From contig CM077820.1 in the NCBI GenBank assembly GCA_039720395.1, positions 18,063,923-18,127,922 on the forward strand: a stretch of 64,000 nt of DNA, in the 5' to 3' direction. Below, piece by piece: positions 3,599 to 45,643 of the stretch (position 1 is its first letter; the number at the start of each line of letters is the position of its first letter). This stretch comes from Liquidambar formosana. Lineage: Eukaryota > Streptophyta > Magnoliopsida > Saxifragales > Altingiaceae. A program made the position numbers and the translations under genes. The notes beneath the pieces are model-generated. The model saw nothing but the letters and a program-made list of their open reading frames with translations, was not told the origin of the DNA and made no database searches.

Positions 3599-3603
3599 GT
3601 TCC

Positions 3604-5261
3604 TGTTGGGAATCGAACAAGAGGGAAAAATAGAAGTGCGGAATATAAAAATTTTTTCCTACGATTCCCAATCCCATGAATCTAACTATGCATAACACAA
3701 AATCAAACCCTAACTACAAGAGGGTTAGAACACTTACAGAATTTTTGTCTTCTCCTTTTTGCTCCAAGCTTTGATTCCGGACAGCGGTGAATGAGCAGCC
3801 CAAGTGTGCTGCCTCCAACGGTATCCACACCTAGCTAGAGCTTCAAGTCCTTTCTTTCTTCTTCCTTGTTGTTGCTAGAGGTGGAGAAGAGAGAGAGAGA
3901 GAAGAGAGCCTCCAAGGGGCTGGACGGCTAGGGTTTATTGTGCAAGCCTTTTTATGCCATGTCACACATAAGTGTGACTTATATAGGCAGCCCACTAAAG
4001 GGGGCTGGCCATGGGGAAGAAACCCTAATAGGGTTATGTGTAATTACACTTAATTGCACATTAACCCCTATTATTTGTATCAAATACAAATAGGCCTATA
4101 AAGAACTATTCTTTATTCACTAAAACCCTTTCTCTCATAGACTTTAAAGCCCTTCTTGCATGATCAGTGTGTGACCCATTGGGTTCACATCATTAAGTAG
4201 TAGGAATAGCACGAGGTGTGCACAATGGAACTCTTTCCATTTAGGGTCTAATTGGAACTCCTTCCAATTCCCTAATTGATTATAACTCACTTATATCAAT
4301 TAGGGCTTCTACTAACCATGAGTAACACCTAGCATATGGCTCACGGTGTGGTCCTTAATGAGGTGAATAGTCATTTACAAAGAACCCTTCTGTTATAGTT
4401 TATAGGTTACAATTGCATCCTTCCTTCAACACAATGTCTCCAATTGAACTAATAGGACATGGAAGTCTGTCAAGTCCCTAGTTCAATTACTTTATACTCA
4501 TTCATAGATATCAACTCATTGATGAACTCATGAAACTCTTTTCATATTCATCCTACCATGGCCATGGATTTAATGAGTTATATTATGAATGCTATATGAG
4601 ACATTCTCTCTCTTTTCCTGAGAGTGATGGATCCCTTGTTGATCACTCATATGCCTTCACACACATAGCAGTAGGGCCAATGAACACCTTTGCAAACCCC
4701 TGAATAGGATTTGCACTTAGTGTTATCAAACTTCTAAAGCTACATGCATAAGGCAACTATGGTGTCTCAGGTCTAAGGATTACTTGTACCACTATAACAA
4801 TGAGAAACTGATTGACAGGCAGGAAAAAACTCCATTCAGTTTATCTCATATCTTTGGTCACATTCAGTGTACCTATTCTCGTAATAGGCACCCACTTATT
4901 GGTTGTAGTATCTCCACACAAATAGCTTGAGACTAGCTATCCTCCTATAGAGTCAACCTAACAAGTGCTAGTCCTATGGTTCATTATTGTCCATCATAGT
5001 GAACCTTCAACTAGGAATGCTTTAGGAATTTAGTACAGAGATATATCTACAGTCTCAAAATTACAACTCTTTGTAATTCCATATTCTCAACTCTAACTCC
5101 ATGGACATATTATGTAAATATAAATGATGCATATAAACATAATAGAATAAGCCCTTTTATTAAATCGATAATAAATGTAACATACATAAATGAAATCAAA
5201 TGATTGTTCCTAATCCCTAAACAATCATCTCTATGATTGGCTCTAGGGCATAATCCTAACA
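3604..5261 (-). repeat. Left LTR (3' LTR in element orientation), 1658 bp
   Basis: Begins TGTTGGGAATCG and ends AATCCTAACA. It is almost identical to 11631-13286. Found differences are 3 extra bases near 3677, one base fewer in an A run near 3650, and C versus T near 4810. A third, truncated copy of this LTR family lies at 44151-45609. Confidence 0.92.
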
Positions 5262-11629: not shown

Positions 11630-11630
11630 C

Positions 11631-13286
11631 TGTTGGGAATCGAACAAGAGGGAAAAATAGAAGTGCGGAATATAAAAAATTTTTTCCTACGATTCCCAAT
11701 CCCAATCTAACTATGCATAACACAAAATCAAACCCTAACTACAAGAGGGTTAGAACACTTACAGAATTTTTGTCTTCTCCTTTTTGCTCCAAGCTTTGAT
11801 TCCGGACAGCGGTGAATGAGCAGCCCAAGTGTGCTGCCTCCAACGGTATCCACACCTAGCTAGAGCTTCAAGTCCTTTCTTTCTTCTTCCTTGTTGTTGC
11901 TAGAGGTGGAGAAGAGAGAGAGAGAGAAGAGAGCCTCCAAGGGGCTGGACGGCTAGGGTTTATTGTGCAAGCCTTTTTATGCCATGTCACACATAAGTGT
12001 GACTTATATAGGCAGCCCACTAAAGGGGGCTGGCCATGGGGAAGAAACCCTAATAGGGTTATGTGTAATTACACTTAATTGCACATTAACCCCTATTATT
12101 TGTATCAAATACAAATAGGCCTATAAAGAACTATTCTTTATTCACTAAAACCCTTTCTCTCATAGACTTTAAAGCCCTTCTTGCATGATCAGTGTGTGAC
12201 CCATTGGGTTCACATCATTAAGTAGTAGGAATAGCACGAGGTGTGCACAATGGAACTCTTTCCATTTAGGGTCTAATTGGAACTCCTTCCAATTCCCTAA
12301 TTGATTATAACTCACTTATATCAATTAGGGCTTCTACTAACCATGAGTAACACCTAGCATATGGCTCACGGTGTGGTCCTTAATGAGGTGAATAGTCATT
12401 TACAAAGAACCCTTCTGTTATAGTTTATAGGTTACAATTGCATCCTTCCTTCAACACAATGTCTCCAATTGAACTAATAGGACATGGAAGTCTGTCAAGT
12501 CCCTAGTTCAATTACTTTATACTCATTCATAGATATCAACTCATTGATGAACTCATGAAACTCTTTTCATATTCATCCTACCATGGCCATGGATTTAATG
12601 AGTTATATTATGAATGCTATATGAGACATTCTCTCTCTTTTCCTGAGAGTGATGGATCCCTTGTTGATCACTCATATGCCTTCACACACATAGCAGTAGG
12701 GCCAATGAACACCTTTGCAAACCCCTGAATAGGATTTGCACTTAGTGTTATCAAACTTCTAAAGCTACATGCATAAGGCAACTATGGTGTCTCAGGTCTA
12801 AGGATTACTTGTACCACTATAACAATGAGAAATTGATTGACAGGCAGGAAAAAACTCCATTCAGTTTATCTCATATCTTTGGTCACATTCAGTGTACCTA
12901 TTCTCGTAATAGGCACCCACTTATTGGTTGTAGTATCTCCACACAAATAGCTTGAGACTAGCTATCCTCCTATAGAGTCAACCTAACAAGTGCTAGTCCT
13001 ATGGTTCATTATTGTCCATCATAGTGAACCTTCAACTAGGAATGCTTTAGGAATTTAGTACAGAGATATATCTACAGTCTCAAAATTACAACTCTTTGTA
13101 ATTCCATATTCTCAACTCTAACTCCATGGACATATTATGTAAATATAAATGATGCATATAAACATAATAGAATAAGCCCTTTTATTAAATCGATAATAAA
13201 TGTAACATACATAAATGAAATCAAATGATTGTTCCTAATCCCTAAACAATCATCTCTATGATTGGCTCTAGGGCATAATCCTAACA
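11631..13286 (-). repeat. Right LTR (5' LTR in element orientation), 1656 bp
   Basis: Near-identical partner of 3604-5261, followed by the target duplication GTTCC (13287-13291). Confidence 0.92.
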
Positions 13287-13667: not shown

Positions 13668-15204
13668 TGTTTTGAATCTTTCAGTCATTTACAAACTTTA
13701 AAATTCTTGTATTACATCATTCTTATAGGCTCCAAAACTTGGATAGAGAAACTTGCAAGAAAAACCAAATAGTAGGCTAGTCCAAATCTAGAAGACCCAA
13801 TAAAAACCATACAAGACTCAACCCAAGGAAACACATTCTGGCACTCCATAAAACTTTAATCAAAATTTGAATAAAACTAAACCAGCTGCATGGGACCCTA
13901 AAGGAAGGATAAAATCATACTTGACTTTAAGCAAACTCAATTTAGCAAGGTCCTAAGAGGGCCTCATATTGAAATTGAATTGACTTTCGGGGACTGTTAA
14001 GGCCTTCATTTTTTTGCAACCTTTATCTTCTGTTGCATACTTGTCATTGGTTGACAAAAAGTAGATTTCTTGTTGATATAGAAGTAATTGCAGTGATTTG
14101 CAATCATCATCCGGGGATTTAAGTGACTAGATTGATTGGAAAGTGATTATTCCTAATTGTGGCAGTTTTTTTAGGTGAAAATAAATTTTAGTTTTAAAAA
14201 AGGCCAAAGCTTATCCTCATGGTCTTCTCAACCTGAACTCTTTGAATGCATTTTATCTTGCCCATGGATATCCGAAGATTTTTGTGCCACTTTTCCTGGT
14301 TGAACTGGGCAACTAGGTTGTGTTTCTTAAATTTTTTGCATCTGTGGATAGAATCCGAATCTGCATTTGGCATTGTTGAATGATAGGATTTATATGTGCT
14401 TATAACCCTGAGGTGCTTGAAAATACTGCCACATAGTTTTTGTCAATGATAGGCTTCCTTAACAAGTCAAAGGAACTATTTGTTCTAATACAAGTCTAAC
14501 TGTAAGACTTCCTGTTTGAAAAATTGTTTCAGCCTCTAAACTAACTGTGCTGCCCATCCTTAAGAACTATGCTATGTGATGACTCTGTCGAGTTTCCATT
14601 ACTGTTTTGATATTGACAAATGGAAATTATGCTTATATATTTTGCGTTCTCTTTTGCAAATATGTTTTTCAATGAGTTGGCATTATTTGGTGTCTTCTTC
14701 TGGTGCTTATGTGCTTAGCCATTGCAGCCCTTTGCATATATCATATGAAGGTGGTTCTATATTATCAGGTATATTCATGACTTTTATCATATGTTGAGTA
14801 CTCTTTTTACTCTCTTTTTCTTTGTATTCAGCATTTTTACCATGTTCTAACATCTATGAGGCGGCCTCAAGGAAGAGGTTTGGAGTTAGCAAGAAAACAC
14901 ATAGCCTCCTACTTATCAGAGCTAGACTGCATTCGTAGATCATCAGATTTCCTTAGGTCTAGTGCACGTAATACTAGTGAACATGGTGTAGACGATAGAA
15001 CAACGGCTTCTGGTTGTCAACCAATTGGGTTCAATGCTACTTTAAACAGCAGATTGTCTGCCCCCACTCCACCACATGCAATTAGAACTCTTAGTTGGGA
15101 AAAGGTGAGGGAGAACTTCTGGTTTGTCAACCAAGTGGAATGAATATTGTTATAGCTAGTAATTTACTTTATTATCCTCATATTTTTGTTTCTCTTCCAC
15201 CAGG

Positions 15205-15264
15205 CTGTTGAATATTTCAAGAAATTTTTTCATGATCTTGACATTATTTGTTCCTACGAGTAAT
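15205..15264 (+). pseudogene. Degenerate duplicate of the AVEYF exon, copy A
   Basis: After an acceptor (CCACCAG) it reads [19 protein letters not shown] then a stop. It closely parallels the start of the exon at 15462-15605. It arose by a local duplication of intron end plus exon start, about 257 bp apart. It could only act as a poison exon. Confidence 0.6.
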
Positions 15265-15278
15265 ATACTTTTGCTCTT

Positions 15279-15419
15279 GCTAAACCCCTTGGGGCCACCC
15301 ACACAAGGTTCCATGTTTCTCATGGGCCTTGGACTTACCTGGTCCATATGGGTTGGGTGGTCTTATATGGACTCGAGGTTTGCCCGAAGGGCTTCCTCAT
15401 TATAAAAAAAATAAAATAA
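15279..15419 (+). mobile_element. SINE, 5'-truncated, copy A
   Basis: A 141-bp insertion ends in GGGCTTCCTCATTATA and an A-rich tail. It is flanked by a perfect 14-bp duplication, ATACTTTTGCTCTT (15265-15278 and 15420-15433). The 3' end resembles the Au-type plant SINE. No clear A/B box pair is seen, so the 5' end appears truncated. It is shared by copy B, so it predates the 3.6-kb duplication. Confidence 0.75.
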
Positions 15420-16858
15420 ATACTTTTGCTCTTATGAAATACTTTGCTTCTCTTCTGCCAGGCTGTTGAATATTTTGAGAAACTTCTTGATGATCTAGAT
15501 ATTATATGTTCCTATTCTTTGGACCCATTGTTTGAAAGAGTTTCGCGGTTTGTGGTTCAATTCCAAAAGTCTCAGCCTAATTTAGTTGCAAGAGCTCATC
15601 TCCAGGTTGGTATCCACTGTGCCTTCTATTTCTACTTGCTGTTTCAATTCTGTTTCTGGTTTGATAACTGTGGTCTCTTCTTTTGTTCTATGATGTGGCT
15701 ACTGATTGTCACTAGGTACCTACTTTATCAGGCTGTTAGGTACTGTTTTTCTTATAACAAATACTGTTTCCATTTCAATTCTTTTAGAAAATTTCACACA
15801 TACGTATATATATGAAGATGTGACAAGGACATGTGTTGGAACATGACTAGCTTGAGAACAATTGAAGGTGAGATTGGTGAATTTCCAATCACTATAGGCC
15901 TACAACGGTAGGCATTGGGCTTGTATGATGTTTTTTTTTTTTCCATTAAAAAGGTTGAGTTAACTGGGAACATTGTCTAAGATATCCTATGGGATATGTT
16001 CGAATGTTTGATGACAAATTAGATTTGGTAAATGCTAAGTTATAACAATGTAGAGATGCTTAAAAATGAAGAGGTTTTTTGGGTAAGCAGGAATAGAACA
16101 TTATATTGGAATATAATTCTGATAAATAGGAGTAAAATCAAGGAAATAATGAAAAATGTCGATGGGGAAGGAGATTCCCAAAAGTGCTGTGATTTGTTAT
16201 AATGAATTATGGAATGGAGGATTTAAGAATATGGTACCCAGGTGATGGATGAAGTGGAGAAGTGTTTTAGGCTACAAATGTCAATAATGTGAAAGCATTT
16301 AATAGGGGTTCCTAAAAAAGCTTGTTTTTTTCAGAGGGGACAGACAATTAGGAACAGAGAGAGTAATTCATATTACATTCAAGAAATTATTTATTTATTT
16401 ATTTTTTGTCGTGCACTATTCTTAATTTTTGCTTTTTCCATAAGAATTAAAATTTGTTTAAGGTAAAATGTATGCACAAGAAATACACAGTACCATGGAT
16501 TCTAAGGATGCTCTGGTCCTCACTGAAGAGTATTTAATTTATAATTTTATGAGATACTTAGTGATACTTAGTGATTAGCATTCTGAAGCTTGCAATGTTA
16601 TCTTTATTTTTTATTTTTTATCTTTTATTTGATTTATAATCTCTTTTCTATCATTATATTTATTAAATATTTTTTTGATAGGAATTATATTTATTAATTC
16701 TCACCCTTACCTTCATAAAACAGGTTCTATTGGTCCAAGATGGGAAACTTTATGGGCGGGATCCTATCTTTTCTGTGATCTCTAGAGCTGCAGCATTACC
16801 TAAAGTCACAAAGAATCATGATATCCAAAAGAATGAATATGTTTTATAATTAGGACAG

Positions 16859-17600
16859 GTGAAGATCTTTATATTGGCCTTTGTTATATTTATATTTATT
16901 TTAATGCATCTTTTTCCAGAGTATTCTCGTGAGAAATCTTGATCTATTCCAACTATTTGGACCATTATTGTTGTTGGGTTGGCTTGGAACTCCAAAGAAA
17001 TGGTCCATAGGAAACTTGATTATCAGGTGGCTATTTTCTTCAAGCTGGGTTAACTTTTAGTCCAGAAGATGTTTTTATTTATTTATTTTTATTTTTTATT
17101 ATCAAGTTGCTATTTTCTTCAAGCTGGGTTAAGACTAGTTATTTAATCATTCCATCACAGCATCCTGTTTGACTGAGAAGTTTTCTTGAGATTTTCATGT
17201 TGGATTGCGTTGACCAAACAAAATTGATGCATTATGGAGCATGTATGAAAGCACGGTTTGTCTAGGCAAGGTTTATAACCTGAAGAATAGTCAAGTATTC
17301 TGTTTCAGTTGAGTTTATTATGAAGTTCACAAGGCTAACCAATTTCTGTCATGTTCCTTTGTGTCTTAGAATTTATTAGTTTGGACCTTTTAACTCCCAA
17401 CACCAGTTAGGATCTAAGATGATCAATTTTCGCCTACATGAATCAATGTGATGAAAGCCAAATTTGATTCCTGTATGTGATGCTTATCTAATATACATGA
17501 TGTCCTTTGTTCAAGTGTTTCTTCTAATGGTTTTGTAGTATAATTGCAGAAAATTTTGTCACTAATCGGTGCAATGCTGAGGCAAAAGCAGTGGTTCCAC
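16859..17600 (+). other. Decayed intron/exon remainder of the NAA35-like region
   Basis: A possible diverged exon lies at about 16919-17025, after TTTTCCAG and before GTGGCT. Its frame is not clearly alignable to NAA35. The rest is intron-like. The exon starting near 17549 (AAAATTTTGTCACTAATCGG) is cut by the LTR at 17601; it is complete in copy B. Confidence 0.4.
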
Positions 17601-18129
17601 TGTAAGCGCCGCGGGCTGATGCGGCCCTTAGGACGTATAATGCTATTGCGAAGCACTAGCGTATCGGGAGTCGCCACCCAAGTCAGCCTTGGGAACTAAT
17701 CATACCATTCTGGGTAATTCAATCTCAAATTCGACGTATTCGGGCCAGAGATCCAGAGTTCGGAGCTAAGGTACAATGTTGGGAAGGTGTTAAGCACCCA
17801 ACAATGCCCGATAAAAAAACCGGACTCCGTAAACGATTGTTGGCTATATTTAATCCAGAAAATTTAGTTGAATTTCATCCATAAGCACACAATATATGAA
17901 ATGTCATGCCAATCATATGAAAAATGATGTGAGTAAAGTAAAAAAAAGGCTATAATACATAGCAAAACAGGATATACAGGAAATTGGATATACAGGTTAC
18001 CATTTGATGAAATAAGATATACAAGTTAACATTTAATGAACTAGCCAAAACCAGGGTAAATCATCATAAATATTTAATATTAAAAAGAGACATAATAATG
18101 ACTGAAGTTAATGAAAGAGTAGTGACAGG

Positions 18130-18231
18130 TGCGTATGCAACAGGGAATAATGAGTACGCATGGTGCGTACGCAACAATAACTAATGCGCACGCACATAAG
18201 TGCGTACGCAACATACCATAATGCGTACGCA
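18130..18231. repeat. Paired-palindrome cluster 1 (six TGCGTACGCA-type decamers)
   Basis: Decamer starts are 18130, 18151, 18164, 18185, 18201 and 18222, giving steps 21-13-21-16-21. Three are perfect TGCGTACGCA and the rest differ at 1-2 bases. Spacers within pairs are 11 nt and unrelated. It lies inside the LTR. Confidence 0.9.
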
Positions 18232-19053
18232 TAAGTGCACTGTGTTCTTTCCTCTACCCTTGGCACGGACTGAAATTACTCACGACAGTTTTCATTTTGT
18301 TAGGGACCAACTTCTTTCTAGCTTATCTCAGTCATTTCTTAACCATATTCAATGATTTAAAACCCAGATTACAGTTCCTATAGTATACTACAAACACGCA
18401 TAACTCATTTACACAGATATTTACAGAATCATGGTCATATTTGAGTTCAAAGTCTGGGATTTCCGACCCGGCGACTATCCGGTCCGTACAAAGTAACAAA
18501 ATAATTAATGATACCTATCTACTGGGTATATAATAGCTAATCCTCAATGTATTCTTCAGTGTTAAAAACAAGAATAATAGACATTAGAATGAGAATAACT
18601 TACCCTCAGGTTTGAGTACCTCCGATATCGATGCAACAATTCCCACCTTATCGCCTTAGATTGCAGCTGTACATTCCCTTGGTTTCTTTCTGGTTTTCTA
18701 ATGTTTGAATGTTTGCTTGATGGATGATTTCATTTCTTTTTCTCCCTTAGTTCCTGACTGGTTTTTCTCACTGATTTCTCAATATTTCCATGTTATTCAC
18801 TCAAATGATTTTTCTGAACCTCTTCCCCCTATTCAGAAGAGTCTTTATTTATAGACTGCGGTAAGTCGGTTCTCTTCACTAAAAACCAAAATCATATCTG
18901 TGCGACCCAGGAAATCAGCAACCGGCTGGTTCCCTTGTTTTGTTCCCCATACATTTCAAATTCAAGTGGTCGCCGAAATCTTTTCTCTCTACCCCATGCT
19001 GATCAGACTTGGGTGAAAACATCGGTGCTGGAAAACGGGGAAGTGACAGATGA

Positions 19054-19118
19054 TGCGTACGCATACCTTACTGTTGCGTACGCATAATGCGTACGCATTA
19101 GAATCATATGCGTACGTG
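19054..19118. repeat. Paired-palindrome cluster 2 (four decamers)
   Basis: Starts are 19054, 19075, 19088 and 19109, giving steps 21-13-21. It lies near the other end of the same LTR. Confidence 0.9.
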
Positions 19119-19271
19119 TGGGGTATACAGAGAAGTTTTCAACTTGCAATCTAAGCGTCTCGTTGGGAATTGCTTTATCGATTTCTCGGGGCACACAATA
19201 AACCTCATCATCGGGATTCCAACTCGGGTGATCTCAGATCTGATTGGGTGGTACAAAATGGGGTGTCTACA

Positions 19272-19288
19272 GTTGCCCCTCTTTCGAT
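19272..19288 (-). other. Polypurine tract of the antisense-gene element
   Basis: The minus strand reads GAAAGAGGGGCAAC just before TGTAGACACC of the LTR. This sets the element's orientation as minus, opposite to its genes. Confidence 0.6.
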
Positions 19289-19560
19289 TATACTCGCTCA
19301 TGAGTAATATCGGAAGACTTCATAGACCCGTCCATTTTTACCAACTGACCAAATCGAAATCGAAGTACATGCAATGGGTCGAGCTAGGAATCACCCAACT
19401 ACCTACGTACCCTTTGGAAGGGATCAGACCTGCCGTAGTTCGTGCAAACAAAATAAAAGCTCACCTGGGCGGTGATGTAGGGTATCAGTGTATGAGTTAA
19501 AGAAAATAGCCATCTCAGGCTTGTGAGGAACTGTCCTTGACGAAGGGCAATAAGGCGTTA

Positions 19561-19870
19561 TCGAACCCTATAACAAAGGGTTGACCTCAGCAGAGGCCCA
19601 CATAAGTGATTTCAAGTGATGTCGGACCCTATAAAGAGGGTTGACGTCAACGGAGGCCCAAATCATCATATCGGACCCTACAAATAGGGTTGACCTCAAC
19701 GGAGGCCCAAGTCGTCATATCGGACCCTACTAATAGGGTTGACCTCAACGGAGGCCCAAATCGTCATATCGGACCCTACAAATAGGGTTGACCTCAACAG
19801 AGGCCCAAATCGGGTGATATCGGACCCTACAAATAGGGTTGACCTCAACAGAGGCCCAAGTCGAGTGATT
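19561..19870. repeat. Tandem repeat, ~49-bp unit, about six copies
   Basis: The unit TCGGACCCTACAAATAGGGT, then TGACCTCAACGGAGGCCC, starts at 19561, 19622, 19671, 19720, 19769 and 19820, with periods 61, 49, 49, 49 and 51. GACCCTA...TAGGGT is an inverted pair within each unit. It is non-coding, between the LTR and the PMD gene. Confidence 0.85.
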
Positions 19871-20016
19871 TTGAAGAATGGTCGTGATTTTCGGACCTTA
19901 ACGAAGATCGGGTATTAAATTTGGACCCTTACCAAGGACTGGTATCAAGTCGAGACTTAACTACAAATTAGGTGTCAATATTGCCCCTGGTTTATAGTCA
20001 ACCAAAATCATGAAGA

Positions 20017-20081
20017 TGCGTACGCATAACCCACTAATGCGTCCGCAGGGAGCGTGCGCAAGATTGAACCTTGCGTACGCA
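20017..20081. repeat. Paired-palindrome cluster 3 (four decamers)
   Basis: Starts are 20017, 20038 (TGCGTCCGCA), 20051 (AGCGTGCGCA) and 20072, giving steps 21-13-21, the same as cluster 2. It lies about 300 bp upstream of the PMD start codon. Confidence 0.9.
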
Positions 20082-20378
20082 ACTGTGTGTTAATTTTCAC
20101 ACAGCAACTGGGACGGCGTCGTTTCGTTTAGCAGTGGTTTCAAAACTCATGCCTCTTCGTCTCCGGCGAGAACCGTTTCTGTTTTAACTCCTTCTCTTTC
20201 TAAACCCTCTTTACATTCGAAAACCTTAGCCCCTTCTCATTCTCTCTCTCTCTCTCTGTTTCTCTTATTCTTCCCCTTCTTAACTTTTTCTTGCTTTTCC
20301 TTTTTTTTTTTTTTTCACAACACCGTCGTCGTCCTCGGTTTTTCTCCGGCGATACCCGAGGCTTCTTCATCAACAAAA

Positions 20379-22199
20379 ATGGCCCCGAAGCGAGTTCGTG
20401 GCGATGACGATGGCTTCGTCATCAACAGGTGGGATCCTCAGCTTCCTCCGAACGCCATACCGGAGATCCTATACCGGCCTACGGAGCACCGTTCCCAGAT
20501 CGCACGGCAGCAGCGGGTATGTGATCGAAAATCGAATTTTTTTTTTTTTTTCTTTAACCTTTGTTAATGCATGCTAAAAATTCAGAATTTAAATAACTTA
20601 TGATGCCCGATAAACCTATAAAAAAGCATTGTGAAATCTGACAATAACACAATAAAGAAGAAATGGAAATGGCGGGACGAAACAGGGGCTGCGTGTGCAA
20701 AGAACTTTGGTTTAACCACTGCGTACGCAACACCACCGGTTGCGTACGCAATAATGATACTTGAGTTCTTTACAGCAGACCTCGAAAACAAAACCTACAT
20801 GACCTATGACCTTAGACTTAATCATGGTGGATGTTGCACGGGGAGAAAAGGAAGGGGTGGTACCCTATTCAGCGGGATGATGTCGCCACTGATGCGTACG
20901 CATCTACAACGGTTGCGTACGCATCATGTGCGAAGAATTTCGAGGTTTAGAGCTCTGAGTCTCAAACTCGAGAGGAACCCGTGATTGATACTAACATCGG
21001 GTCCGCATAGATCAATCATGCGTACGTAACAATATTATTTTAATAAACTTGTGTACTTAACCCCACTTGATGCGTACGCAATCTCACAGACCCTTAAGCC
21101 AGGCCCCAGGATTTTGATGAATAGGCCTAATGATGGCACAGTGAGGGAGCACAGATGCGTACGCAGTGTACGTGAATGCGTACGCATGGCATTGTTGCGT
21201 ACGCATTTGTGTTCATTGCGTATGCATGGGTGAACAGGTTCTGGTGCGTACGCAACTATGGGTATTGAGTACGCATATTTCATGAATTCCATAGAATTAT
21301 CTAATATACATACCTGTTTTTATACTTACCTGACTTTAATCTTTTGCAGACTCCGAAGAAGAAGTATGGACGCGGTAGCATGGATAGCCTGACTAGCTGG
21401 TGGGGTCGGCTTACCGAGGAGACCCGGCAGTTGGTCATAGACGCGGGCTTCGGGAAGCTCGCCACTGACACCATCACGCGCCGTCCTGGCCCTACCCTTG
21501 TGCTTGCCTTGGCCGAGAGGTGGTGGGACACCACCCACACCTTCCATATAGCTGGACGGGAGTACACCATGACCCCGTATGATTTTTACCGCCTGACTGG
21601 GCTGAGGATGAGGGGACGGCGGTTTACTTTTGAGCTGACGGAGGCCGATCGCAAGGCCTTGACCTTGCGCTTGTTGGGAGTTCCTTGCCCATCTGCTACG
21701 CTGAAGTACCCAGCCCTGCTTGCTGCGTACTCTCAGAGAGGTCAGGATACTGTGGAGGATCGCACGCAGATGGCGCGAGCATTCATTCTATACTTCCTTG
21801 GCGCCTTTCTGGTCGCCAATTCTGCACAGACAGTGAGTGGAGCCTGGATGGCTACTGGCTTTGGATGATTTGGCTGCTGCCAGAGAGTACGGCTGGGGGA
21901 GTGCAGTGCTTTCTCATCTGTATGCCACCATGGATTCTCTGAGTCGGCTAGTGTCTGATCCTACCGGATGTTGGCGCTTGTGGGGGGTAAGATGCTTCTG
22001 TTCCTTTTTCCTTTTCTGTACTTTTCTTTTTTTATTTTTGACTGTAAATGGTAACATCTGAACTGTACAGTTGTGGGCTCGTGAGTATCTCACCCTGGAG
22101 CCTCTGATGGATGGTGACGAGGCTTCACACATCGTGGTCAGGGAGTTTTTGGACAGATTAGATAGGGTAAGTGCCTTCCTTTCCTCTCTTTCCCCCTCT

Positions 22200-22234
<35 letters not shown>

Positions 22235-23142
22235 CAAACTGTACTAACTTCCTCTTTTTTTTGCAGGTGAATGCCCGACCATGGGTGGGTGCTCCAGAGC
22301 TGGGTCCTCAGGACTGGGAGGAGGATGCACGGGAGATGTCTGAGATCTCCTGTCTGCTATCCTATCCCAGGGCACGCGCCTTCTATTTTGCTGAGAGGGT
22401 GGTGCCCCAGCTCACCATAGACCCGGAGCTGCGCCAGAGGGTTCCTTATGATCCGCCTTCCTTTTCCCTGATCCCCTATTCGATGAGCTCAGCGGATGTA
22501 GAGGAGTGGCGAGAGGGTATCCACTATCTTTCCAGACTACTAGGACCCTCGGAGAGCTACTCCACTTTCGCCCGCGAGCGGCTCATGCCCCGCCTCGTCG
22601 GACACCAGGTATTCTGATTTTCTGTGTTTCTTTTACCTGTTTTTGATCTTTGATACTCACTTTATCTTCTCCTCTTCTGTCAGGTTCCTTTTGCTGGCGC
22701 GCCTGGTGAGGGATTTCCACCTGTATTCCCCTCTTGGTCTGTTCCACTCTTCCGTCGCAACGGCCGGGTTCGCGATGTGCGTATCCAGCGGGATATGACG
22801 GCTTATCCCTGTCCTATTCCTCCTGGTACACGCCAGGTATGTTTTCTCTATTTCTGCAAAAATATGGTTATCATGTGATGTATGCATGTCCTAATTGTTT
22901 TTCCCATTTTTCCCTATTAGCTTACGCTCCCTGAGACTGAGTTCGTCTATCAGATGATAGGCGGACTCAAGCAGCTATGTATTGATCAGTCACAGACCAT
23001 CCTGGAGCTGCGGGGAGGCGCGGGACGAGGTGGTGGTGGTGATACAGACAGTGATGATGATGATGATGACGGGGATGGTGATGAGGAGAGCGTGATGCAG
23101 CCCCCTCGTGGTCGTGGTGGTGCCAGTTCATCCGGTGCTTAG
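20379..23142 (+). CDS. Plant mobile domain (PMD) protein, six exons, one frameshift
   Basis: Exons are 20379-20516, 21350-21986, 22071-22166, 22267-22608, 22684-22836 and 22921-23142. All introns are GT/AG and phase 0. The product would be about 527 residues. Exon 2 reads DSLTSWWGRLTEETRQLV, YDFYRLTGLRMRGRRFTF and later LDDLAAAREYGWGSAVLSHL, the hallmarks of the aminotransferase-like plant mobile domain (MAIN/MAIL1 and transposon-borne relatives; role uncertain). The C-terminus is a Gly/Asp-rich tail. Exon 2 is 637 nt, one over a multiple of three: a tandem AGTGAGTG at 21832-21839 shifts the frame and meets a stop at 21868. The gene is otherwise intact. The start ATG follows CAACAAAA. Intron 1 carries palindrome clusters. 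Confidence 0.7.
20720..20750. repeat. Paired-palindrome cluster 4 (one pair)
   Basis: Two perfect TGCGTACGCA at 20720 and 20741, in PMD intron 1. Confidence 0.9.
20893..20923. repeat. Paired-palindrome cluster 5 (one pair)
   Basis: Two perfect TGCGTACGCA at 20893 and 20914, in PMD intron 1. Confidence 0.9.
20998..21275. repeat. Paired-palindrome cluster 6 (five pairs)
   Basis: Pairs start at 20998/21019, 21050/21071 (first member very degenerate), 21156/21177, 21196/21217 and 21245/21266. Each step is 21. Five decamers are perfect. All lie in PMD intron 1, ending about 75 bp before the exon 2 acceptor. Confidence 0.85.
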
Positions 23143-23203
23143 AGGCGATAGATTTCTTTCTTTGTTCACTTACCCCCTCTTTTCTTAGAACAGTTTCTGT
23201 ATT

Positions 23204-23243
<40 letters not shown>

Positions 23244-23705
23244 GGATGTGTATTTAAACATTTCTGCCATAACCTTTATTTCAGTTTTTTATTTTCATTA
23301 GCAATTGCATGTTTATATGAAAATACGCGCGAATCTACATAAATCACTGATATTTCATTGAAAACCATCCACCAAGACTTGATCGAACCAAACAACCACT
23401 ATCTTTCGAACTCGGTATCTGTCGTGAAAATCTGCTAGCAGAAATCCACACAAATGTGTGCGCAAGACAAAGTGATGGTATGCATGTTGCGTACGCAGGA
23501 TGATAGTGTGCGTACGCATGATGCGTACGCAATTTAGAAATTATCGTACGCATGTGAGTGCTCTATGGGACCCACACAGCTGCATGATTATCCTTTTCTT
23601 TTCATTCCACCGCCTTCTTTCAAAAGTCCTCGATAATGACAAACCTTTCTGAATGCCTTAAATCATTTTCTTTATTCCACCGCCTGTCTTCAGAAATTCT
23701 TGGTA
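23143..23705. other. Spacer between the two antisense genes
   Basis: Holds a long T run near 23200-23242 and palindrome cluster 7. No coding sequence is recognised. Confidence 0.5.
23455..23552. repeat. Paired-palindrome cluster 7 (six decamers)
   Basis: Starts are 23455 (TGTGTGCGCA), 23476 (degenerate), 23488, 23509, 23522 and 23543 (ATCGTACGCA). Steps are 21-12-21-13-21. Intergenic. Confidence 0.88.
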
Positions 23706-24323
23706 ATGGCAATTCTTTCCGATTGGATTAAATCTTTTAATCGTCAGTTTCGCGAGGAGCTGAATACACAATTCCACTTAGCTTCTTTACTTGATTACTC
23801 CAAAGTGCGGATCGATCAGAACTTTCTTCAATTTGCTGCGGGATTTTGGGATCCTTCCCGTCATGTGTTTCGCTTCAACAATTCAGAGATGTGTCCTACC
23901 ATGGAGGAGTTTGGAGCTATTCTCGGGCGTTCCGACTTTACTCATGTCCTGCTACCCTCAATTGCCCAAGCTAAAGCTGAGGATTTAGTTCCCATATTTG
24001 GTATCTCCTTTAGAGTTGCTCGTGACTTGTTTTCAGATTCCCGAATAAACTTGCAGTCCTTGATCTCATATTTCCGTCAACTTCCTACTGCGGGCACAGA
24101 AAACCAACCTCAGTATCAATTAAATGCCACTTGTTTTTGTATCTTGGCAAAATACTTATTCATGGGTGATTCTGATTTTGTTGACGCAACTCTGCTGCGA
24201 GTCCTTCCTGTCTTAAAGGTTCAAAATCCTTGCATGATGATTTTAGCTGGTACTCTCAATGCTTTGAGCAAATTCGTGAGAGGTGAGGTTTCCTTCATAG
24301 GCGGTAGTCCCCTTTTGCTGCAG
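23706..24323 (+). CDS. DUF7745-like plant transposon protein, first exon only
   Basis: 206 codons run from ATG (23706) to a consensus donor GTGAGT after LLLQ (24323, phase 0). The protein includes FAAGFWDPSRHVFRFNN and CPTMEEFGAILGRSDF, the pattern I associate with DUF7745 / PMD-like N-terminal domains of plant retroelement ORFs. No molecular role is established. The following intron holds palindrome cluster 8 and is cut at 24498 by copy B, so the 3' part is lost. It is the second antisense gene of the element, 563 bp after the PMD stop. Confidence 0.55.
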
Positions 24324-24379
24324 GTGAGTTTACTGCCTCCTTCCCCCTTTTTTTTTTTTCAGTTCTGCTACTGCCTTGT

Positions 24380-24481
24380 TGCGTACGCATTTGGAGGTGT
24401 AGCGGACGCAGCTTGCGTACGCATCAGTTTACATTGCGTACGTTATGGGTTGCGTACGCAATAGTTTATTGAGCGTACGCA
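24380..24481. repeat. Paired-palindrome cluster 8 (six decamers)
   Basis: Starts are 24380, 24401 (AGCGGACGCA), 24414, 24435, 24451 and 24472. Steps are 21-13-21-16-21, exactly the pattern of cluster 1 in the LTR 6.2 kb away, although spacers differ. Confidence 0.9.
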
Positions 24482-25381
24482 TATTTGGTAGCATTTGTTA
24501 AGAGGGCCTCATATTGAAATTGAACTGACTTTCGGGGACTGTTAAGGCCTTCATTTTTTTGCAACCTTTATCTTCTGTTGCTACTTGTCATTGGTTGACA
24601 AAAAGTAGATTTCTTGTTGATATAGAAGTAATTGCAGTGATTTGCAATCATCATCCGGGGATTTAAGTGACTGGATTGATTAGAAAGTGATTATTCCTAA
24701 TTGTGGCAGTTTTTTTGGTGAAAAAAATTTTAGTTTTAAAAAAGGCCAAAGCTTATCCTCATGGTCTTCTCACCTGAACTCTTCGAATGCATTTTATCTT
24801 GCCCATGGATATCCGAAGATTTTTGTGCCACTTTTCCTGGTTGAACTGGGCAACTAGGTTGTGTTTCTTAAATTTTTTGCATCTGTGGATAGAATCCGAA
24901 TCTGCATTTGGCATTATTGAATGATAGGATTTATATGTGCTTATAACCTGAGGTGCTTGAAAATACTGCCCCATAGTTTTTGTCAATGATAGGCTTCCTT
25001 AACAAGTCAAAGGAACTATTTGTTCTAATACAAGTCTAACTGTAAGACTTCCTGTTTGAAAAATTGTTTCAGCCTCTAAACTAACTGTGCTGCCCATCCT
25101 TAAGAACTATGCTATGTGATGACTCTGTCGAGTTTCCATTACTGTTTGATATTGACAAATGGAAATTATGCTTATATATTTTGCGTTCTCTTTTGCAAAT
25201 ATGTTTTTCAATGAGTTGGCATTATTTGGTGTCTTCTTCTGGTGCTTATGTCTTAGCCATTGCAGCCCTTTGCATATATCATGAAGGGGTTCTATATTAT
25301 CAGGTATTCATGACTTTTCATATGTTGAGTACTCTTTTACTCTCTTTTTCTTTGTATTCAGCATTTTTACCATGTTCTAAC

Positions 25382-27370
25382 ATCTATGAGGCGGCCTCAA
25401 GGAAGAGGTTTGGAGTTAGCAAGAAAACCATAGCCTCCTACTTATCAGAGCTAGACTGCATTCGAAGATCATCAGATTTCCTTAGGTCTAGTGCACGTAA
25501 TACTAGTGAACATGTGTAGACGATAGAACAACGGCTTCTGGTTGTCAACCAATTGGGTTCAATGCTACTTTAAACAGCAGATTGTCTGCCCCCACTCCAC
25601 CACGTGCAATTAGAACTCTTAGTTGGGAAAAGGTGAGGGAGAACTTCTGGTTTGTCAACCAAGTGGAATGAATATTGTATAGCTAGTAATTTACTTTATT
25701 ATCCTCATATTTTTGTTTCTCTTCCACCAGGCTGTTGAATATTTCAAGAAAATTTTTCATGATCTTGACATTATTTGTTCCTACGAGTAATATACTTTTG
25801 CTCTTGCTAAACCCCTTGGGGCCACCCACACAAGGTTCCATGTTTCTTATGGGCCTTGGACTTACCTGGTCCATATGGGTTGGGTGGTCTTATATGGACT
25901 CGAGGTTTGCCCGAAGGGCTTCCTCATTATAAAAAAATAAAATAAATACTTTTGCTCTTATGAAATACTTTGCTTCTCTTCTGCCAGGCTGTTGAATATT
26001 TTGAGAAACTTCTTGATGATCTAGATATTATTTCCTATTCTTTGGACCCATTGTTTGAAAGAGTTTCGCGGTTTGTGGTTCAATTCCAAAAGTCTCAGCC
26101 TAATTTAGTTGCAAGAGCTCATCTCCAGGTTGGTATCCACTGTGCCTTCTATTTCTACTTGCTGTTTCAATTCTGTTTCTGGTTTGATAACTGTGGTCTC
26201 TTCTTTTGTTCTATGATGTGGCTACTGATTGTCACTAGGTACCTACTTTATCAGGCTGTTAGGTACTATTTTTCTTATAACAAATACTGTTTCCATTTCA
26301 ATTCTTTAGAAAATTTCACACATACTATATATGAAGATGTGACAAGGACATTTGTTGGAACATGACTAGCTTGAGAACAATTGAAGGTGAGATTGGTGAA
26401 TTTCCAATCACTATAGGCCTACAACGGTAGGCATTGGGCTTGTATGATGTTTTTTTTTTTTTTTCCATTAAAAAGGTTGAGTTAACTGGGAACATTGTCT
26501 AAGATATCCTATGGGATATGTTCGAATGTTTGATGACAAATTAGTTTTGGTAAATGCTAAGTTATAACAATGTAGAGATGCTTAAAATGAAGAGGTTTTT
26601 TGGGTAAGCAGGAATAGACATTATATTGGAATATAATTCTAATAAATAGGAGTAAAATCAAGGAAATAATGAAAAATGTCGATGGGGAAGGAGATTCCCA
26701 AAAGTGCTGTGATTTGTTATAATGAATTATGGAATGGAGGATTTAAGAATATGGTACCCAGGTGATGGATGAAGTGGAGAAGTGTTTTAGGCTACAAATG
26801 TCAATAATGTGAAAGCATTTAATAGGGGTTCCTAAAAAAGCTTGTTTTTTTCAGAGGGGACAGACAATTAGGAACAGAGAGAGTAATTCATATTACATTC
26901 AAGAAATTATTTATTATTTATTTTTGTCGTGCACTATTCTTAATTTTTGCTTTTTCCATAAGAATTAAAATTTGTTTAAGGTAAAATGTATGCACAAGAA
27001 ATACACAGTACCATGGATTCTAAGGATGCTCTGGTCCTCACTGAAGAGTATTTAATTTATAATTTTATGAGATACTTAGTGATACTTAGTGATTATTCTG
27101 AAGCTTGCAATGTTATCTTTATTTTTTATTTTTTATCTTTTATTTGATTTATAATCTCTTTTCTATCATTATATTTATTAAATCTTTTTTTGATAGGAAT
27201 ATATTTATTAATTCTCACCCTTACCTTCATAAAACAGGTTCTATTGGTCCAAGATGGGAAACTTTATGGGCGGATCCTATCTTTTCTGTGATCTCTAGAG
27301 CTGCAGCATTACCTGAAGTCACAAAGAATCATGATATCCAAAAGAATGAATATGTTTTATAATTAGGACA
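25382..27370 (+). pseudogene. NAA35: NAA35-like pseudogene, copy B
   Basis: Same exons as copy A but frames are further broken: one base is lost in the HIASYL exon near 25430, one in EHG near 25513, three in the DIIC codons near 26030, and one G in YGRDP near 27272. The nonsense TAA after NEYVL is shared with copy A, so it predates the duplication. Nothing here could encode a working NatC subunit. Confidence 0.6.
25806..25945 (+). mobile_element. SINE, copy B
   Basis: Same insertion as 15279-15419 with the same 14-bp flanking duplication (25792-25805 and 25946-25959). Its A tail is one base shorter. Confidence 0.75.
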
Positions 27371-28054
27371 GGTGAAGATCTTTATTGGCCTTTGTTATAT
27401 TTATATTTTTTAATGCATCTTTTTCCAGAGTATTCTCGTGAGAAATCTTGATCTATTCCAACTATTTGGACCATTATTGTTGTTGGGTTGGCTTGGAACT
27501 CCAAAGAAATGGTCCATAGGAAACTTGATTATCAGGTGGCTATTTTCTTCAAGCTGGGTTAACTTTTAGTCCAGAAGATGTTTTATTTATTTATTTTTAT
27601 TTTTTATTATCAAGTTGCTATTTTCTTCAAGCTGGGTTAACTAGTTATTTAATCATTCCATCACAGCATCCTGTTTGACTGAGAAGTTTTCTTGAGATTT
27701 TCATGTTGGATTGCGTTGACCAAACAAAATTGATGCATTATGGAGCATGTATGAAAGCACGGTTTGTCTAGGCAAGGTTTATAACCTGAAGAATAGTCAA
27801 GTATTCTGTTTCAGTTGATTTTTTATGAAGTTCACAAGGCTAACCAATTTCTGTCATGTTCCTTTGTGTCTTAGAATTTATTAGTTTGGACCTTTTAACT
27901 CCCAACACCAGTTAGGATCTAAGATGATCAATTTTCGCCTACATGAATCAATGTGATGAAAGCCAAATTTGATTCCTGTATGTGATGCTTATCTAATATA
28001 CATGATGTCCTTTGTTCAAGTGTTTCTTCTAATGGTTTTGTAGTATAATTGCAG

Positions 28055-28189
28055 AAAATTTTGTCACTAATCGGTGCAATGCTGAGGCAAAAGCAGTGGT
28101 TCCACCAATTAAAATTAAAAAAGAAAATAAGAAACGAGCAGCATCATCTGATCCGGATCTTGCAAGTTCAAGAGACCTGGATGACACTG
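28055..28189 (+). pseudogene. Unidentified exon fragment rich in Lys/Asp
   Basis: Between an acceptor (AATTGCAG) and a donor (GTATGC) one frame reads NFVTNRCNAEAKAVVPPIKI, then a basic stretch KKENKKR and SSDPDLASSRDLDDTG. I do not recognise the family. The 5' half of this exon is also present at the end of copy A, where the LTR cuts it. It could be a 3' exon of the NAA35-like gene or of another captured gene. Confidence 0.35.
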
Positions 28190-34840: not shown

Positions 34841-37593
34841 CTTGCCTGAAAAACCTCATAAGCAAAAAAAAAAATCTTTTTCAAAACCATTTTTATAAAT
34901 AAAGAAATATTGAAAAAGATTTGAAATGATTTTTAAACACTAATCTGGTCTTTTATCAGATAAGGTCGGTGGTCCTTAGTGTTCAGTTAGTGTTGTACGC
35001 CTTTGTGTCAATTCCTTCAGCAGCACGGGCAGGGACTTTGATTCCACAGGAAAATCGAGGACATTACAAAACAAATCATAGGGAAAAACTTAAAAGTGAT
35101 CATAGGAAGACCTCACAGATATTGCATTTGACATCATTATCTTCTCTGCCAAAGCCCATGGTTCCTATTTTTAGAGGTGTAGTTTCATAGATGCTCCTTT
35201 TAAAGCATTTCGCCACTGTTTCTTCAGTTAGAGCTATGCTCACGTTACCCATCCTCTCTTCTAGAGCTAATAATTCCTGTCATGTAGCATTAAAATAGAG
35301 TAAGGTAAGGTAAGAATAGCTAAATATCACATTTTACCGGATAAAACAATGTTAGCTCTAAACCTATCAATAAAGGCCTGTTTGAACATCCCACAAAAAT
35401 TGAATTGTTTAATCATGTTCTGCTTATAATTTGGTTAACAAATCCTTTGTTCTGAATAGGGAATCTAAGGGAATGGAATCCATAATCTTTAATGACACTA
35501 AAAAATCTGAGCAACATTATATGAATCCTAGTTTGGTCTTATAACATCAATGAAGCTGATGGATCCAAATTTCTTTTACTCATGGCCCCATTCAAGATGA
35601 TGGATTTGTACCTTTAATGCTATGTAAAATACAATGGAGTGATCCAATCTCCAGAGGACAACCAAATAGGCCTTGCTTCATTGTTTATATTATTAAGTTT
35701 TCAACTGAAATCTCCATGTTAGTAATAATTTTTTCAAACAAAATTGAGATACACGTCATAAAAACTAGAAGCCAAGAAGAAAAATATAATGGGAGAACAT
35801 AAGAAAAATATTTTCAAAAAATTAAATGCAAATTAAACCATAACACTATCAAAAATCATAACAAACCTCGTATGACATGTTATCAATATCTAGTCTCATG
35901 TCTCTATGCTGATCAATATATATAAGCTAAAAATAGTATGAGCTAGGTATAAGCTATTAGTTGAGGCTTACAAGAGAGATGAGTTTGTGAGGGTTTCCTA
36001 GGAGATTTGTGGAGAGGTGAGGGAGAGAAGGGAACACCCGGGGAGCACAGAAACAAGGTATTGTTTTAGGTTTCAAGTTTGGGGTAGACGTTGAGCATTT
36101 GGAAATGGGGATTGTTTCAAGGATCGGGAGTGGTGTCATGTATTCTCTATCCTCTATAATTTGTCTATGGTTATACTAGTTTTTCTTGCTTTAAATATGC
36201 TTGCATCAATTGTTTCTGTGAAGGGTTCTATATTTTGTCTTATATTTTCTTATCTTTGGCAGATTGGTACATTAAAAAATGATATAGTGAAGCCCTTTGA
36301 CAGTATCGAGAAATATGGTATGTCCTCTTTTTTTTTTTTTTTTTTTTTTGGGAAAAGAAATTCTGTGTATTTTGATATTCTTCTTCTATTCTATAACTTG
36401 TGGGTTTTTGTGCTCTTTTCTTTGTTATTGTAATTTACCTCTTGAGCTGCTACTTGAACTTTTTAAGTTATTGAATTAGATTTTTTTTTCCTACTTGCAT
36501 ATGTATTTTAGAATTGCCATGCATTTAATAGATCATGAAGACATGAATGAAGCCCACTTTTGATAACTATGCCTAACTAAGACCTTGTAATATATTGATT
36601 GATCGTTTCCTTTTTACATAGGCTTCGAAAGTTATGATCATATTTCTAGTACCCTGAACCACATTATTGATAGTAGTAGAAGCTTCTTTCATTGTAGAAG
36701 GGATGATGATTATTCAAGATGCTTTCTAGTTCCTAGTCTTATCACTTAAATGCTTTCCATGAACTTCTAATAGTTTTTCTTTGGTTCTTCTTAAATCCTA
36801 GTACACTTTTAAATCTTATAAAACCTAACTTATTCACAAAGGAAGAATTTATCCAGCTTATGGGTTTCGAATAGGTTGACTCATTGACCTAACTAGATAA
36901 TCCGTATGATGTATGATTGGTGAAATATAAAAAATAAAATAAAATTGGAGATATTGTCATTTTTCCAAGTCTAATATAAAATGGGTCTGGATCTGAATCT
37001 TAAATTAATAGCAGTTGCCATATGCAATTCATTGAGGAAATATCATTGTCTGAATATTTGATTCTCTTTTAGTTAGTCTCTCTCTCTCACTTTCTAATTT
37101 TCTTTGTTTCTTTGCAATGTTTTATAGGAGTAGATTGTTGTTAATCAGCTGGAATTTCTTGCATTTTGGATGCTTTAGTATCTTTGGAGTAAATGGTTGC
37201 TAATCAGCTGGAATTTTTGTATTTTGGATGCTTTTAGTATCTTTGTTGATTTACTTCAAAATTTGTAATGACATTTTGGAAGGTTGAAGGTTGAAGGCTT
37301 TAATTTGTAATGACATTTTGGAAAAGGTTAAAGTTTGAAGCTTTTAATATAGTGATATGGATGCTTTAATATCTTTGTTGATTTATTTTCAATTTATAAT
37401 GACATTTTGGAAGGTTGATATTTTGGATGGCTTCATTAGTTAAATGAATGTTTAAAGTTTGGGTTTGAATTAATTTAGATAAGTTTGGGATTGAGATATC
37501 ATATTTTGGATGGTTTTATTACCTTAAATAGGGTACAGGTATAAGTCACCATGAAAAAGACAGATTTCTATTTAATATATATATAAGTTATTG
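34841..37593. other. Non-coding region with minor direct repeats
   Basis: No gene recognised. A T run lies at 36330-36348. At 37127-37420 short blocks recur: AATCAGCTGGAATTT twice and TTTGTAATGACATTTTGGAA about three times. It may be part of the interior of the CACTA element that ends at 38620. Confidence 0.35.
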
Positions 37594-38412
37594 CAACGAC
37601 AAAGTCGTTGCGATAAATAATATTTTTAATTAAAATAATTCTTTCTTGCAACGGGAAGGGTCGTAGCAATAAGTTATTGCCACGGGAACGATTGTAGCAA
37701 TACCTTATTGCAACGCCAAAGTCGTTGTGATAAATAATATTTTTAATTAAAATAATTCTTTGTTGTAACGGGAAAGGTTGTAGTAATAAGTTATTGCCAT
37801 GGGAAGGATTGTTGCAATAACGTATTGCAACGCCGAAGTCGTTGCGATAAATAATATTTTTACTTAAAATAATTCTTTCTTGCAACGGGATCGAGGGTAG
37901 CAATAAGTTATTGCCACGAGAAGAATTGTTGCAATACCTTATTGCAACGCCAAAGTCGTTGCGATAAATAATATTTTTAATTAAAATAATTCTTTCTTGC
38001 AACGAGAAAGGTTGTAGCAATAAGTTATCGCCACGGGAAGGATTGTTGCAATAACATATTGCAACGCCGAAGTCGTTGCGATAAATAATATTTTTAATTA
38101 AAATAATTCTTTCTTGCAACAGGAATTAGCGTAGCAATAAGTTATTGCCACGACAAGAATTGTTGCAATACCTTATTGCAACGCCAAAGTCGTTGCGATA
38201 AATAATATTTTTAATTAAAATAATTCTTTCTTGCAACGGGAAAGGTTGTAGTAATAAGTTATTGCCACGACAAGAATTGTTGCAATACCTTATTGCAACA
38301 CTGAAGTCGTTGCGATAAAGAATATTTTTAATTAAAAATATTATTATTTTTAGGTATATTGCCACAACAATATTGTTGCAATACTTTTTCGCAACAAAAC
38401 AAAAATTGATTG
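37594..38412. repeat. 117-bp tandem array, seven units
   Basis: The palindromic core GCAACGAC-AAA-GTCGTTGC marks units at 37594, 37711, 37828, 37945, 38062, 38179 and 38296. Every step is exactly 117 bp. Units alternate between a CCAAAG and a CCGAAG core (a 234-bp dimer), with matching alternation in the lead-in (ACCTT versus AACGT or AACAT). 117 is divisible by three and the minus strand lacks stops, which yields an incidental 39-residue repeating frame. The last unit is divergent. Confidence 0.92.
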
Positions 38413-38620
38413 CAACAATAAAACCGTTGCATTAAATGGAGGTATATTGCAACGAAATTGGTATTGCAACGATATTTGTTGTTGCAATAACCTATTACCA
38501 CGGAGGTTTTTGCAACGGATTGCAACGGTAGTGTTGTCGTTGCAATAGGTATTTATTGCAACGACTTTGAGGTTATCGCAACGACTTTTACCGTTGCGAT
38601 AGATGCTTTTTCCTGTAGTG
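37594..38620. mobile_element. CACTA (En/Spm) transposon, right terminal region
   Basis: The right end reads TTTTTCCTGTAGTG, i.e. terminal CACTACAGGAAAAA on the minus strand, ending at 38620. Inside it, motifs like CGTTGCAATA and TTGCAACGAC recur in both orientations, as expected for the subterminal binding sites of CACTA transposase. The junction AAGGCAACCCTCCCC lies inside a unit of the 3.05-kb array, whose intact copies read CCCCTGAAAGGCAACC. No left terminus was found in the window, so the element is either long or truncated. Confidence 0.75.
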
Positions 38621-45609: not shown

Positions 45610-45643
45610 CTACCAAGGTGTATAGGTTATGGAGCTTCATCAT
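45610..45643 (-). pseudogene. Signal-peptide mini-ORF, unit 2, cut by LTR
   Basis: Reads MMKLHNLYTLV and then runs into the LTR. The TATA box at 45729-45736 is intact. The LTR fusion gives an open chimeric frame to 45458, which is not meaningful. Confidence 0.55.

What the first reader, a model, noticed from the sequence alone, without database searches (positions are those of the whole stretch)
18130..24481. TGCGTACGCA palindromes arranged as strict 21-bp pairs through one retroelement
By reading positions I find about 20 pairs of TGCGTACGCA (or 1-3-base variants) whose starts are 21 bp apart. They are separated by 11-nt spacers that share no sequence. Pairs are chained at 13 or 16 bp, and two clusters 6.2 kb apart (18130 and 24380) share the full pattern 21-13-21-16-21. 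They lie in the LTR, introns and gene spacer, never in exons. Conserved spacing with free spacers implies selection on helical phase (two DNA turns), e.g. side-by-side dimeric protein sites, or on RNA folding. I know of no described system like it.
Basis: seen in the sequence. Interest (0 to 1): 0.95.

Follow-up and report, generated by a model that had tools for sequence, protein, structure and literature searches.

The report
Paired palindromes in a plant retrotransposon
A plant jumping gene carries about twenty pairs of the same 10-letter palindrome set exactly two DNA turns apart, most likely docking sites for its own proteins, which are predicted to fold like a protein that another plant jumping gene uses to undo its silencing.

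Summary
All 23 exact TGCGTACGCA of the window, and 31 of its 32 copies with up to one mismatch, lie in one 6.9-kb element fragment. Among 40 sites with up to two mismatches, 17 distances are exactly 21 bp; shuffled sequence gives 0.01. None of the 31 lies in a predicted exon. The carrier is an LTR retrotransposon read on the minus strand; its PMD and DUF7745 genes are antisense accessory genes.

Best reading: dimeric sites of a VANC-like, element-encoded regulator, probably anti-silencing. Binding and methylation are untested; the genome-wide histogram could not be run.

The parts
17605..19271 (-). 3' LTR of the retrotransposon, read on the minus strand (TG...CA); carries the clusters at 18130-18231 and 19054-19118
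   Evidence: Minus strand reads GAAAGAGGGGCAAC then TGTAGACACCCC. The left end coincides with the host junction GGTTCCAC|TGTAAGCG. The second LTR is not in the window, so the boundaries rest on TG/CA, the tract and the junction.
19272..19285 (-). Putative polypurine tract next to the 3' LTR
   Evidence: Sequence read on the minus strand; assignment is inference
18130..18231 (.). Cluster 1, in the LTR: three pairs, 21-13-21-16-21
   Evidence: Tandem Repeats Finder also scores it as a 34/37-nt repeat.
19054..19118 (.). Cluster 2, in the LTR about 150-220 bp inside its 5' end: two pairs, 21-13-21
20017..20081 (.). Cluster 3, about 300 bp upstream of the PMD start codon: two pairs, 21-13-21
20720..21275 (.). 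Cluster 4, in intron 1 of the PMD gene: pairs at 20720, 20893, 20998, 21050, 21156, 21196, 21245
   Evidence: the pairs at 20998 and 21050 each have one 3-mismatch member
23488..23552 (.). Cluster 5, between the PMD gene and the DUF7745 start codon: two pairs, 21-13-21
24380..24481 (.). Cluster 6, in the intron after DUF7745 exon 1 (from intron base 57): three pairs, 21-13-21-16-21
   Evidence: Peptides of relatives P0001, P0002 and P0051 are compatible with the motif from intron base 35, 71 and 78 after the same exon end (computed).
20379..23142 (+). PMD gene, antisense to the retrotransposon; predicted exons 20379-20516, 21350-21986, 22071-22166, 22267-22608, 22684-22836, 22921-23142; the reading frame of exon 2 is broken near 21840 in this copy
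   Evidence: PF10536 at E 6.2e-11 in exon 2; GT-AG junctions checked, exons placed by eye; P0004 (97% identical over 92% of the query) has an open frame there
23706..24323 (+). Exon 1 of a DUF7745 gene (a PMD relative), antisense to the retrotransposon; later exons are absent because the element stops at 24498
   Evidence: PF24924 at E 7.3e-9 (longer frame) and 3.3e-9; spliced relatives continue after the same junction
24498..24499 (.). Abrupt end of the element, joined to a second copy of the host segment 13954-17604
   Evidence: 13954-17600 matches 24499-28105 at 98.3%

Best explanation
The paired palindromes are binding sites for a protein that the element itself encodes: its antisense PMD and/or DUF7745 protein, predicted to have the VANC fold. 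Inferred working: each palindrome (extended TGW-TGCGTACGCA-WCA) takes up a dimer. Two dimers sit two helical turns apart on one face of the DNA and bind cooperatively. Chains of pairs give a site density that separates the element from chance single sites in the host genome. Bound protein at the LTR, upstream of both accessory genes and in their first introns removes or blocks silencing (DNA methylation) and so keeps the LTR and the antisense genes active. Shown here: sites, spacing, non-coding placement, motif and spacing in two relatives (through peptides), and a predicted fold match of the encoded protein family to VANC21. Inferred: that these proteins bind these sites, the dimer geometry, and the anti-silencing outcome.
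Confidence: 0.6

Rival explanations
1. Sites for a host transcription factor: the element borrows a host regulator that binds a GTAC-cored palindrome, with paired sites raising affinity at the LTR and at the antisense genes.
For: Placement at the LTR and at gene upstream regions and introns. GTAC is the core of SBP/SPL factor sites (recalled, no call). Nothing here shows that the element's proteins bind DNA.
Against: Only 1 of 32 near-exact sites lies in the other 57 kb of the window. Two genes of a predicted VANC fold in the same element point to an own regulator. Sites also fill introns.
Confidence: 0.2
2. RNA hairpins: each pair makes a 10-bp stem with an 11-nt loop in either transcript, used for packaging, RNA stability or as a small-RNA source.
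For: All 6 single pairs folded alone form the 10-bp stem, and the 2 whole clusters folded have z -4.2 and -7.1 against shuffles.
Against: A hairpin needs arm 2 to complement arm 1, not every arm of every pair to be one and the same palindrome. In 19 of 19 pairs arm mismatches equal the sum of the single changes, none compensated, but only 2 pairs have both arms changed, so power is low. Loop length need not be fixed. Two of the six clusters lie in introns of the antisense genes.
Confidence: 0.1
3. Tandem-repeat debris: a 34/37-nt unit holding one pair was duplicated and scattered; the spacing is inherited, not selected.
For: Tandem Repeats Finder calls 18127-18238 a repeat; spacers are slightly alike inside clusters (236 of 20,000 permutations); spacers as a whole are slightly more alike than shuffled ones (0.290 against 0.270, p 0.033).
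Against: Across the five 21-13-21 clusters non-motif bases agree at 4-11 of 25 in direct and 5-12 of 25 in reverse-complement orientation, and at 11 (14) of 42 between the two six-site clusters. Spacer centres are at chance, while motif bases differ from consensus at 24 of 380 positions. Spacers that diverged to chance without an indel in 19 pairs, and 21-nt spacing in relatives at 63% and 41% identity, speak for selection.
Confidence: 0.1

Closest known systems
VANC21/VANDAL21 and VANC6/VANDAL6 anti-silencing systems of Arabidopsis (Hosaka et al. 2017, PMC5735166: abstract and sections 7-11 read; PMC10398659: passages)
   Same: Transposon-encoded protein of the same predicted fold; short motif at high density in introns, intergenic and terminal non-coding parts of the same transposon and mainly outside its coding regions; motif enriched in its own element
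   Different: VANDALs are Mutator-like DNA transposons (recalled for the class). Their motifs (YAGTATTAY; AGTTGTCC/AGTTGTAC) are non-palindromic and in tandem repeats, for VANC21 in one orientation. Here the carrier has an LTR and the motif is a 10-bp palindrome with two CpGs, fixed in pairs at 21 bp with unrelated spacer centres.
Ogre/Tat/Retand-type Ty3/gypsy elements with extra antisense genes (Neumann 2019 PMC6317226, passages; Vicient 2025 PMC11963269, first of five parts and passages; Vicient 2020 PMC7264820, passages)
   Same: Long region before the 3' LTR with antisense genes and tandem repeats; plant mobile domain reported in 57% of Ogre elements (PMC6317226)
   Different: No passage seen there describes paired palindromic sites; the Retand paper centres on TRP28, not PMD or DUF7745. 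The lineage cannot be tested here (no pol in the window).
MAIN/MAIL1 plant mobile domain proteins (Ikeda 2017 PMC5418596 and Nicolau 2020 PMC7156037, passages)
   Same: Same Pfam domain; host members act in transposon silencing and gene expression; PMD-A clades are reported as encoded only by Gypsy elements; a 'DOWN' promoter motif is enriched in genes that fall in the mutants
   Different: Host proteins, no paired palindromes in the passages seen. Ikeda et al. leave the domain's function open and speculate on anti-silencing for PMDs captured by MULEs.
Sirevirus LTR repeated-motif boxes (Bousios 2010 PMC2829016, abstract and passages)
   Same: High-copy symmetric, CpG-holding motifs in non-coding parts of an LTR retrotransposon, also near an extra gene
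   Different: Ty1/copia; CGG-CCG core; no fixed pair spacing in the passages seen; no encoded binder named there

Membership tests
VANC-type anti-silencing system | Element encodes a protein of the VANC (DUF1985) fold | tested here: met
VANC-type anti-silencing system | Short motif at high density in non-coding parts of the same element | tested here: met
   31 sites with up to 1 mismatch, 0 in predicted exons
VANC-type anti-silencing system | Motifs lie in overt tandem repeats of one orientation | tested here: not met
   The motif is palindromic (no orientation); 1 of 6 clusters scores as a tandem repeat; non-motif bases of clusters are unrelated
VANC-type anti-silencing system | Carrier is a VANDAL Mutator-like DNA transposon | tested here: not met
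   LTR end with adjacent polypurine tract; a transposase was not searched for
VANC-type anti-silencing system | Protein binds the motif and causes local loss of DNA methylation | not testable with these tools
   Needs EMSA, ChIP or DAP-seq and bisulfite data
Ty3/gypsy Ogre/Tat-type element with extra antisense genes | LTR with TG/CA ends and adjacent polypurine tract; PMD-type gene antisense, next to the 3' LTR | tested here: met
   the orientation follows from the tract
Ty3/gypsy Ogre/Tat-type element with extra antisense genes | Reverse transcriptase phylogeny, second LTR, primer site, target duplication | not testable with these tools
   The element is cut at 24498 and the own-genome search did not complete (13 busy errors)
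Sirevirus repeated-motif boxes | CGG-CCG core signature | tested here: not met
   Core is GCGTACGC; column counts
Structured RNA hairpin element | Compensatory changes between the arms of a pair | tested here: inconclusive
   No compensation in 19 pairs, but only 2 pairs have both arms changed

The most novel reading that the evidence does not exclude
PMD, DUF7745 and DUF1985 form one superfamily of transposon-encoded, sequence-specific DNA-binding anti-silencing factors, used by LTR retrotransposons as well as Mutator-like elements. In this retrotransposon family it reads a geometric code: palindromes paired at exactly two helical turns and chained into arrays, so that density and phase, not sequence alone, mark the element as 'self'.
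Probability: 0.42. Interest if true: 0.92.

Novelty: new variant of a known kind. Interest (0 to 1): 0.8.

Why it matters
What PMD-type and other antisense proteins of plant retrotransposons do is described as open in the passages read (PMC5418596, PMC7264820, PMC11963269). Here a candidate protein family, a solved likely relative bound to DNA and a precise candidate target sit together in one element. The function becomes testable with a gel shift, and the answer would bear on how retrotransposons escape silencing and on the origin of the host proteins MAIN and MAIL1.

Tried and rejected
Tandem duplication as the whole explanation: rejected on unrelated spacer centres and fixed length, though local duplication inside cluster 1 is likely. 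RNA hairpin: kept as a minor rival.

Relatives by DNA: no exact pair in viral contigs and no relative of either protein there. In the bacterial and archaeal genome collection 4 contigs hold one exact pair each; I take these as chance and did not study them. The window's own genome could not be searched. Tails were tested by shuffling for 7 of 30 relatives; of the other 23, those seen have tails of at most 5 residues or continue as spliced protein.

Comparison by sequence with solved structures gave nothing convincing. Literature: 'TGCGTACGCA' occurs in 3 held papers (2 listed, both unrelated by title and abstract start). Searches on palindromes with LTR, Sirevirus or Ogre elements (6 of 6 listed; 8 of 21; 10 of 16) listed nothing that by title, abstract start or the passages read shows this pattern. 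A search for a paper on the VANC21 structure listed 10 of 876, none of which holds the word VANC21, so which VANC21 surface touches DNA is unknown to me. The species was not identified.
Full report
What is there. The window holds 23 exact TGCGTACGCA, all inside 18164-24451; with one mismatch allowed 31 of 32 are in the element, with two 40 of 48. Distances among the 40 are dominated by 21 bp (17), then 34 (10), 13 (5) and 37 (4). Shuffles that keep dinucleotides give 0.08 sites (up to one mismatch) and 0.01 pairs (up to two) on average. Random placement inside the same clusters gives 0.85 pairs at 21 against 12 observed, maximum 6 in 5,000. There are 19 pairs if up to four mismatches are allowed over both members. 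Motif bases differ from consensus at 24 of 380 positions. 21 bp is two helical turns, so members of a pair face the same way; 13, 16, 34 and 37 bp are not whole turns, so I take the pair as the unit.

The spacers. Across the five clusters with 21-13-21 the non-motif bases agree at 4 to 11 of 25 (reverse complement: 5 to 12), and at 11 of 42 (14) between the two six-site clusters. The central five spacer bases are at chance. The outer spacer bases are not free: each palindrome tends to be TGW-TGCGTACGCA-WCA, which probably explains why spacers resemble each other's reverse complement (0.312 against 0.275, reached by none of 2,000 shuffles) and, less, each other directly (0.290 against 0.270, p 0.033). 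Some pairs have probably arisen by local duplication.

The carrier. Read on the minus strand, GAAAGAGGGGCAAC is followed by TGTAGACACCCC, a polypurine tract next to an LTR that ends at 17605, where similarity to the empty host site stops. The retrotransposon therefore runs on the minus strand and its two plus-strand genes are antisense: PMD (PF10536) and DUF7745 (PF24924). Of 26 DUF7745 rows 24 match DUF7745 and 9 also or instead match PMD at E up to 0.1, so the two domains are related. The element stops at 24498 inside the intron after DUF7745 exon 1. Sites lie in the LTR, upstream of each gene and in the first intron of each gene. None of the 31 near-exact sites is in a predicted exon; 140 of 6,894 circular shifts do as well (exon ends there differ by up to 2 bases from those checked). 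Two unpaired two-mismatch matches are in exons.

Relatives. DNA of relatives was out of reach, but predicted proteins that run past the splice donor show the intron in translation. A search with exon 1 gave 3 relatives, and one with their alignment 30 (only the 7,999 candidates that share most words were scored). P0002 (63% identical) ends VRTHVDGMRTH: V/M-R-T-H fits (G/A)TG CGT ACG CA, twice, 21 nt apart; no shuffle of 20,000 reaches this exact pair, 1 does if a mismatch is allowed. P0051 (41%) has AYA, AYV, AYA at 21 and 21 nt, compatible with xxT GCG TAC GCA, the middle one with one mismatch; 0 of 20,000. P0001 (77%) ends MRMQ, compatible with TGCGTATGCA, a variant also present in the window (783 of 20,000, weak alone). 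P0003's tail (5 residues) is too short, and four more distant relatives with tails of 39-48 residues have no site (P0052, P0058, P0060, P0073). The others have very short tails or are spliced. So motif and spacing are kept in the nearer family and were not seen beyond it, as expected for a fast-changing self-recognition code.

Mechanism. VANC21 sits on introns, intergenic and terminal non-coding parts of VANDAL21, binds a 9-bp motif, seems to need motif density, and its binding goes with local loss of methylation (PMC5735166, sections 7-11). The present element has the same layout with its own motif. I infer that its PMD and/or DUF7745 protein binds each palindrome as a dimer and each pair as two dimers on one face. 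The likely outcome is relief from silencing at the LTR and at the antisense genes; plain transcriptional autoregulation is the near alternative. CpG is less depleted in the element than in the window away from it (0.74 with sites masked, against 0.43), which fits either low methylation or youth.

Standing. This is a new variant of a known kind: I think it works like a VANC system, but it is not one by carrier (LTR element, not VANDAL) or by motif form (paired palindromes, not same-orientation tandem repeats). Binding and methylation are the missing tests.

Noticed in passing
13954-17604 and 24499-28105: The host segment on the left of the element (NAA35-like, PF25789) recurs on its right at 98.3% and there continues as the empty site. 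Either two haplotypes were joined in assembly or an unequal exchange happened between a filled and an empty allele.
   Followed up: partly
19622-19863: A 49-nt tandem array (4.9 copies, 92% matches) between the LTR and the PMD gene; tandem arrays before the 3' LTR are reported for Retand elements (PMC11963269).
   Followed up: no
23593-23738: A 70-nt repeat in 2.1 copies just upstream of, and reaching into, the start of the DUF7745 exon.
   Followed up: no
3603-5261 and 11630-13286; also 44361-45619: Two direct repeats of 1.66 kb, 99.7% identical and 8.03 kb apart, look like the LTRs of another young retrotransposon; a third copy at about 90% lies at 44361.
   Followed up: no
38600-59450: A repeated unit of about 3.04 kb in several copies at roughly 88-94% identity, next to a 117-nt tandem array at 37466-38467.
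   Followed up: no
Proteins P0059, P0064, P0067 and P0072: Single proteins match both the PMD and the DUF7745 profile; with the DUF1985 match of P0004 this suggests that three Pfam families are one superfamily.
   Followed up: partly
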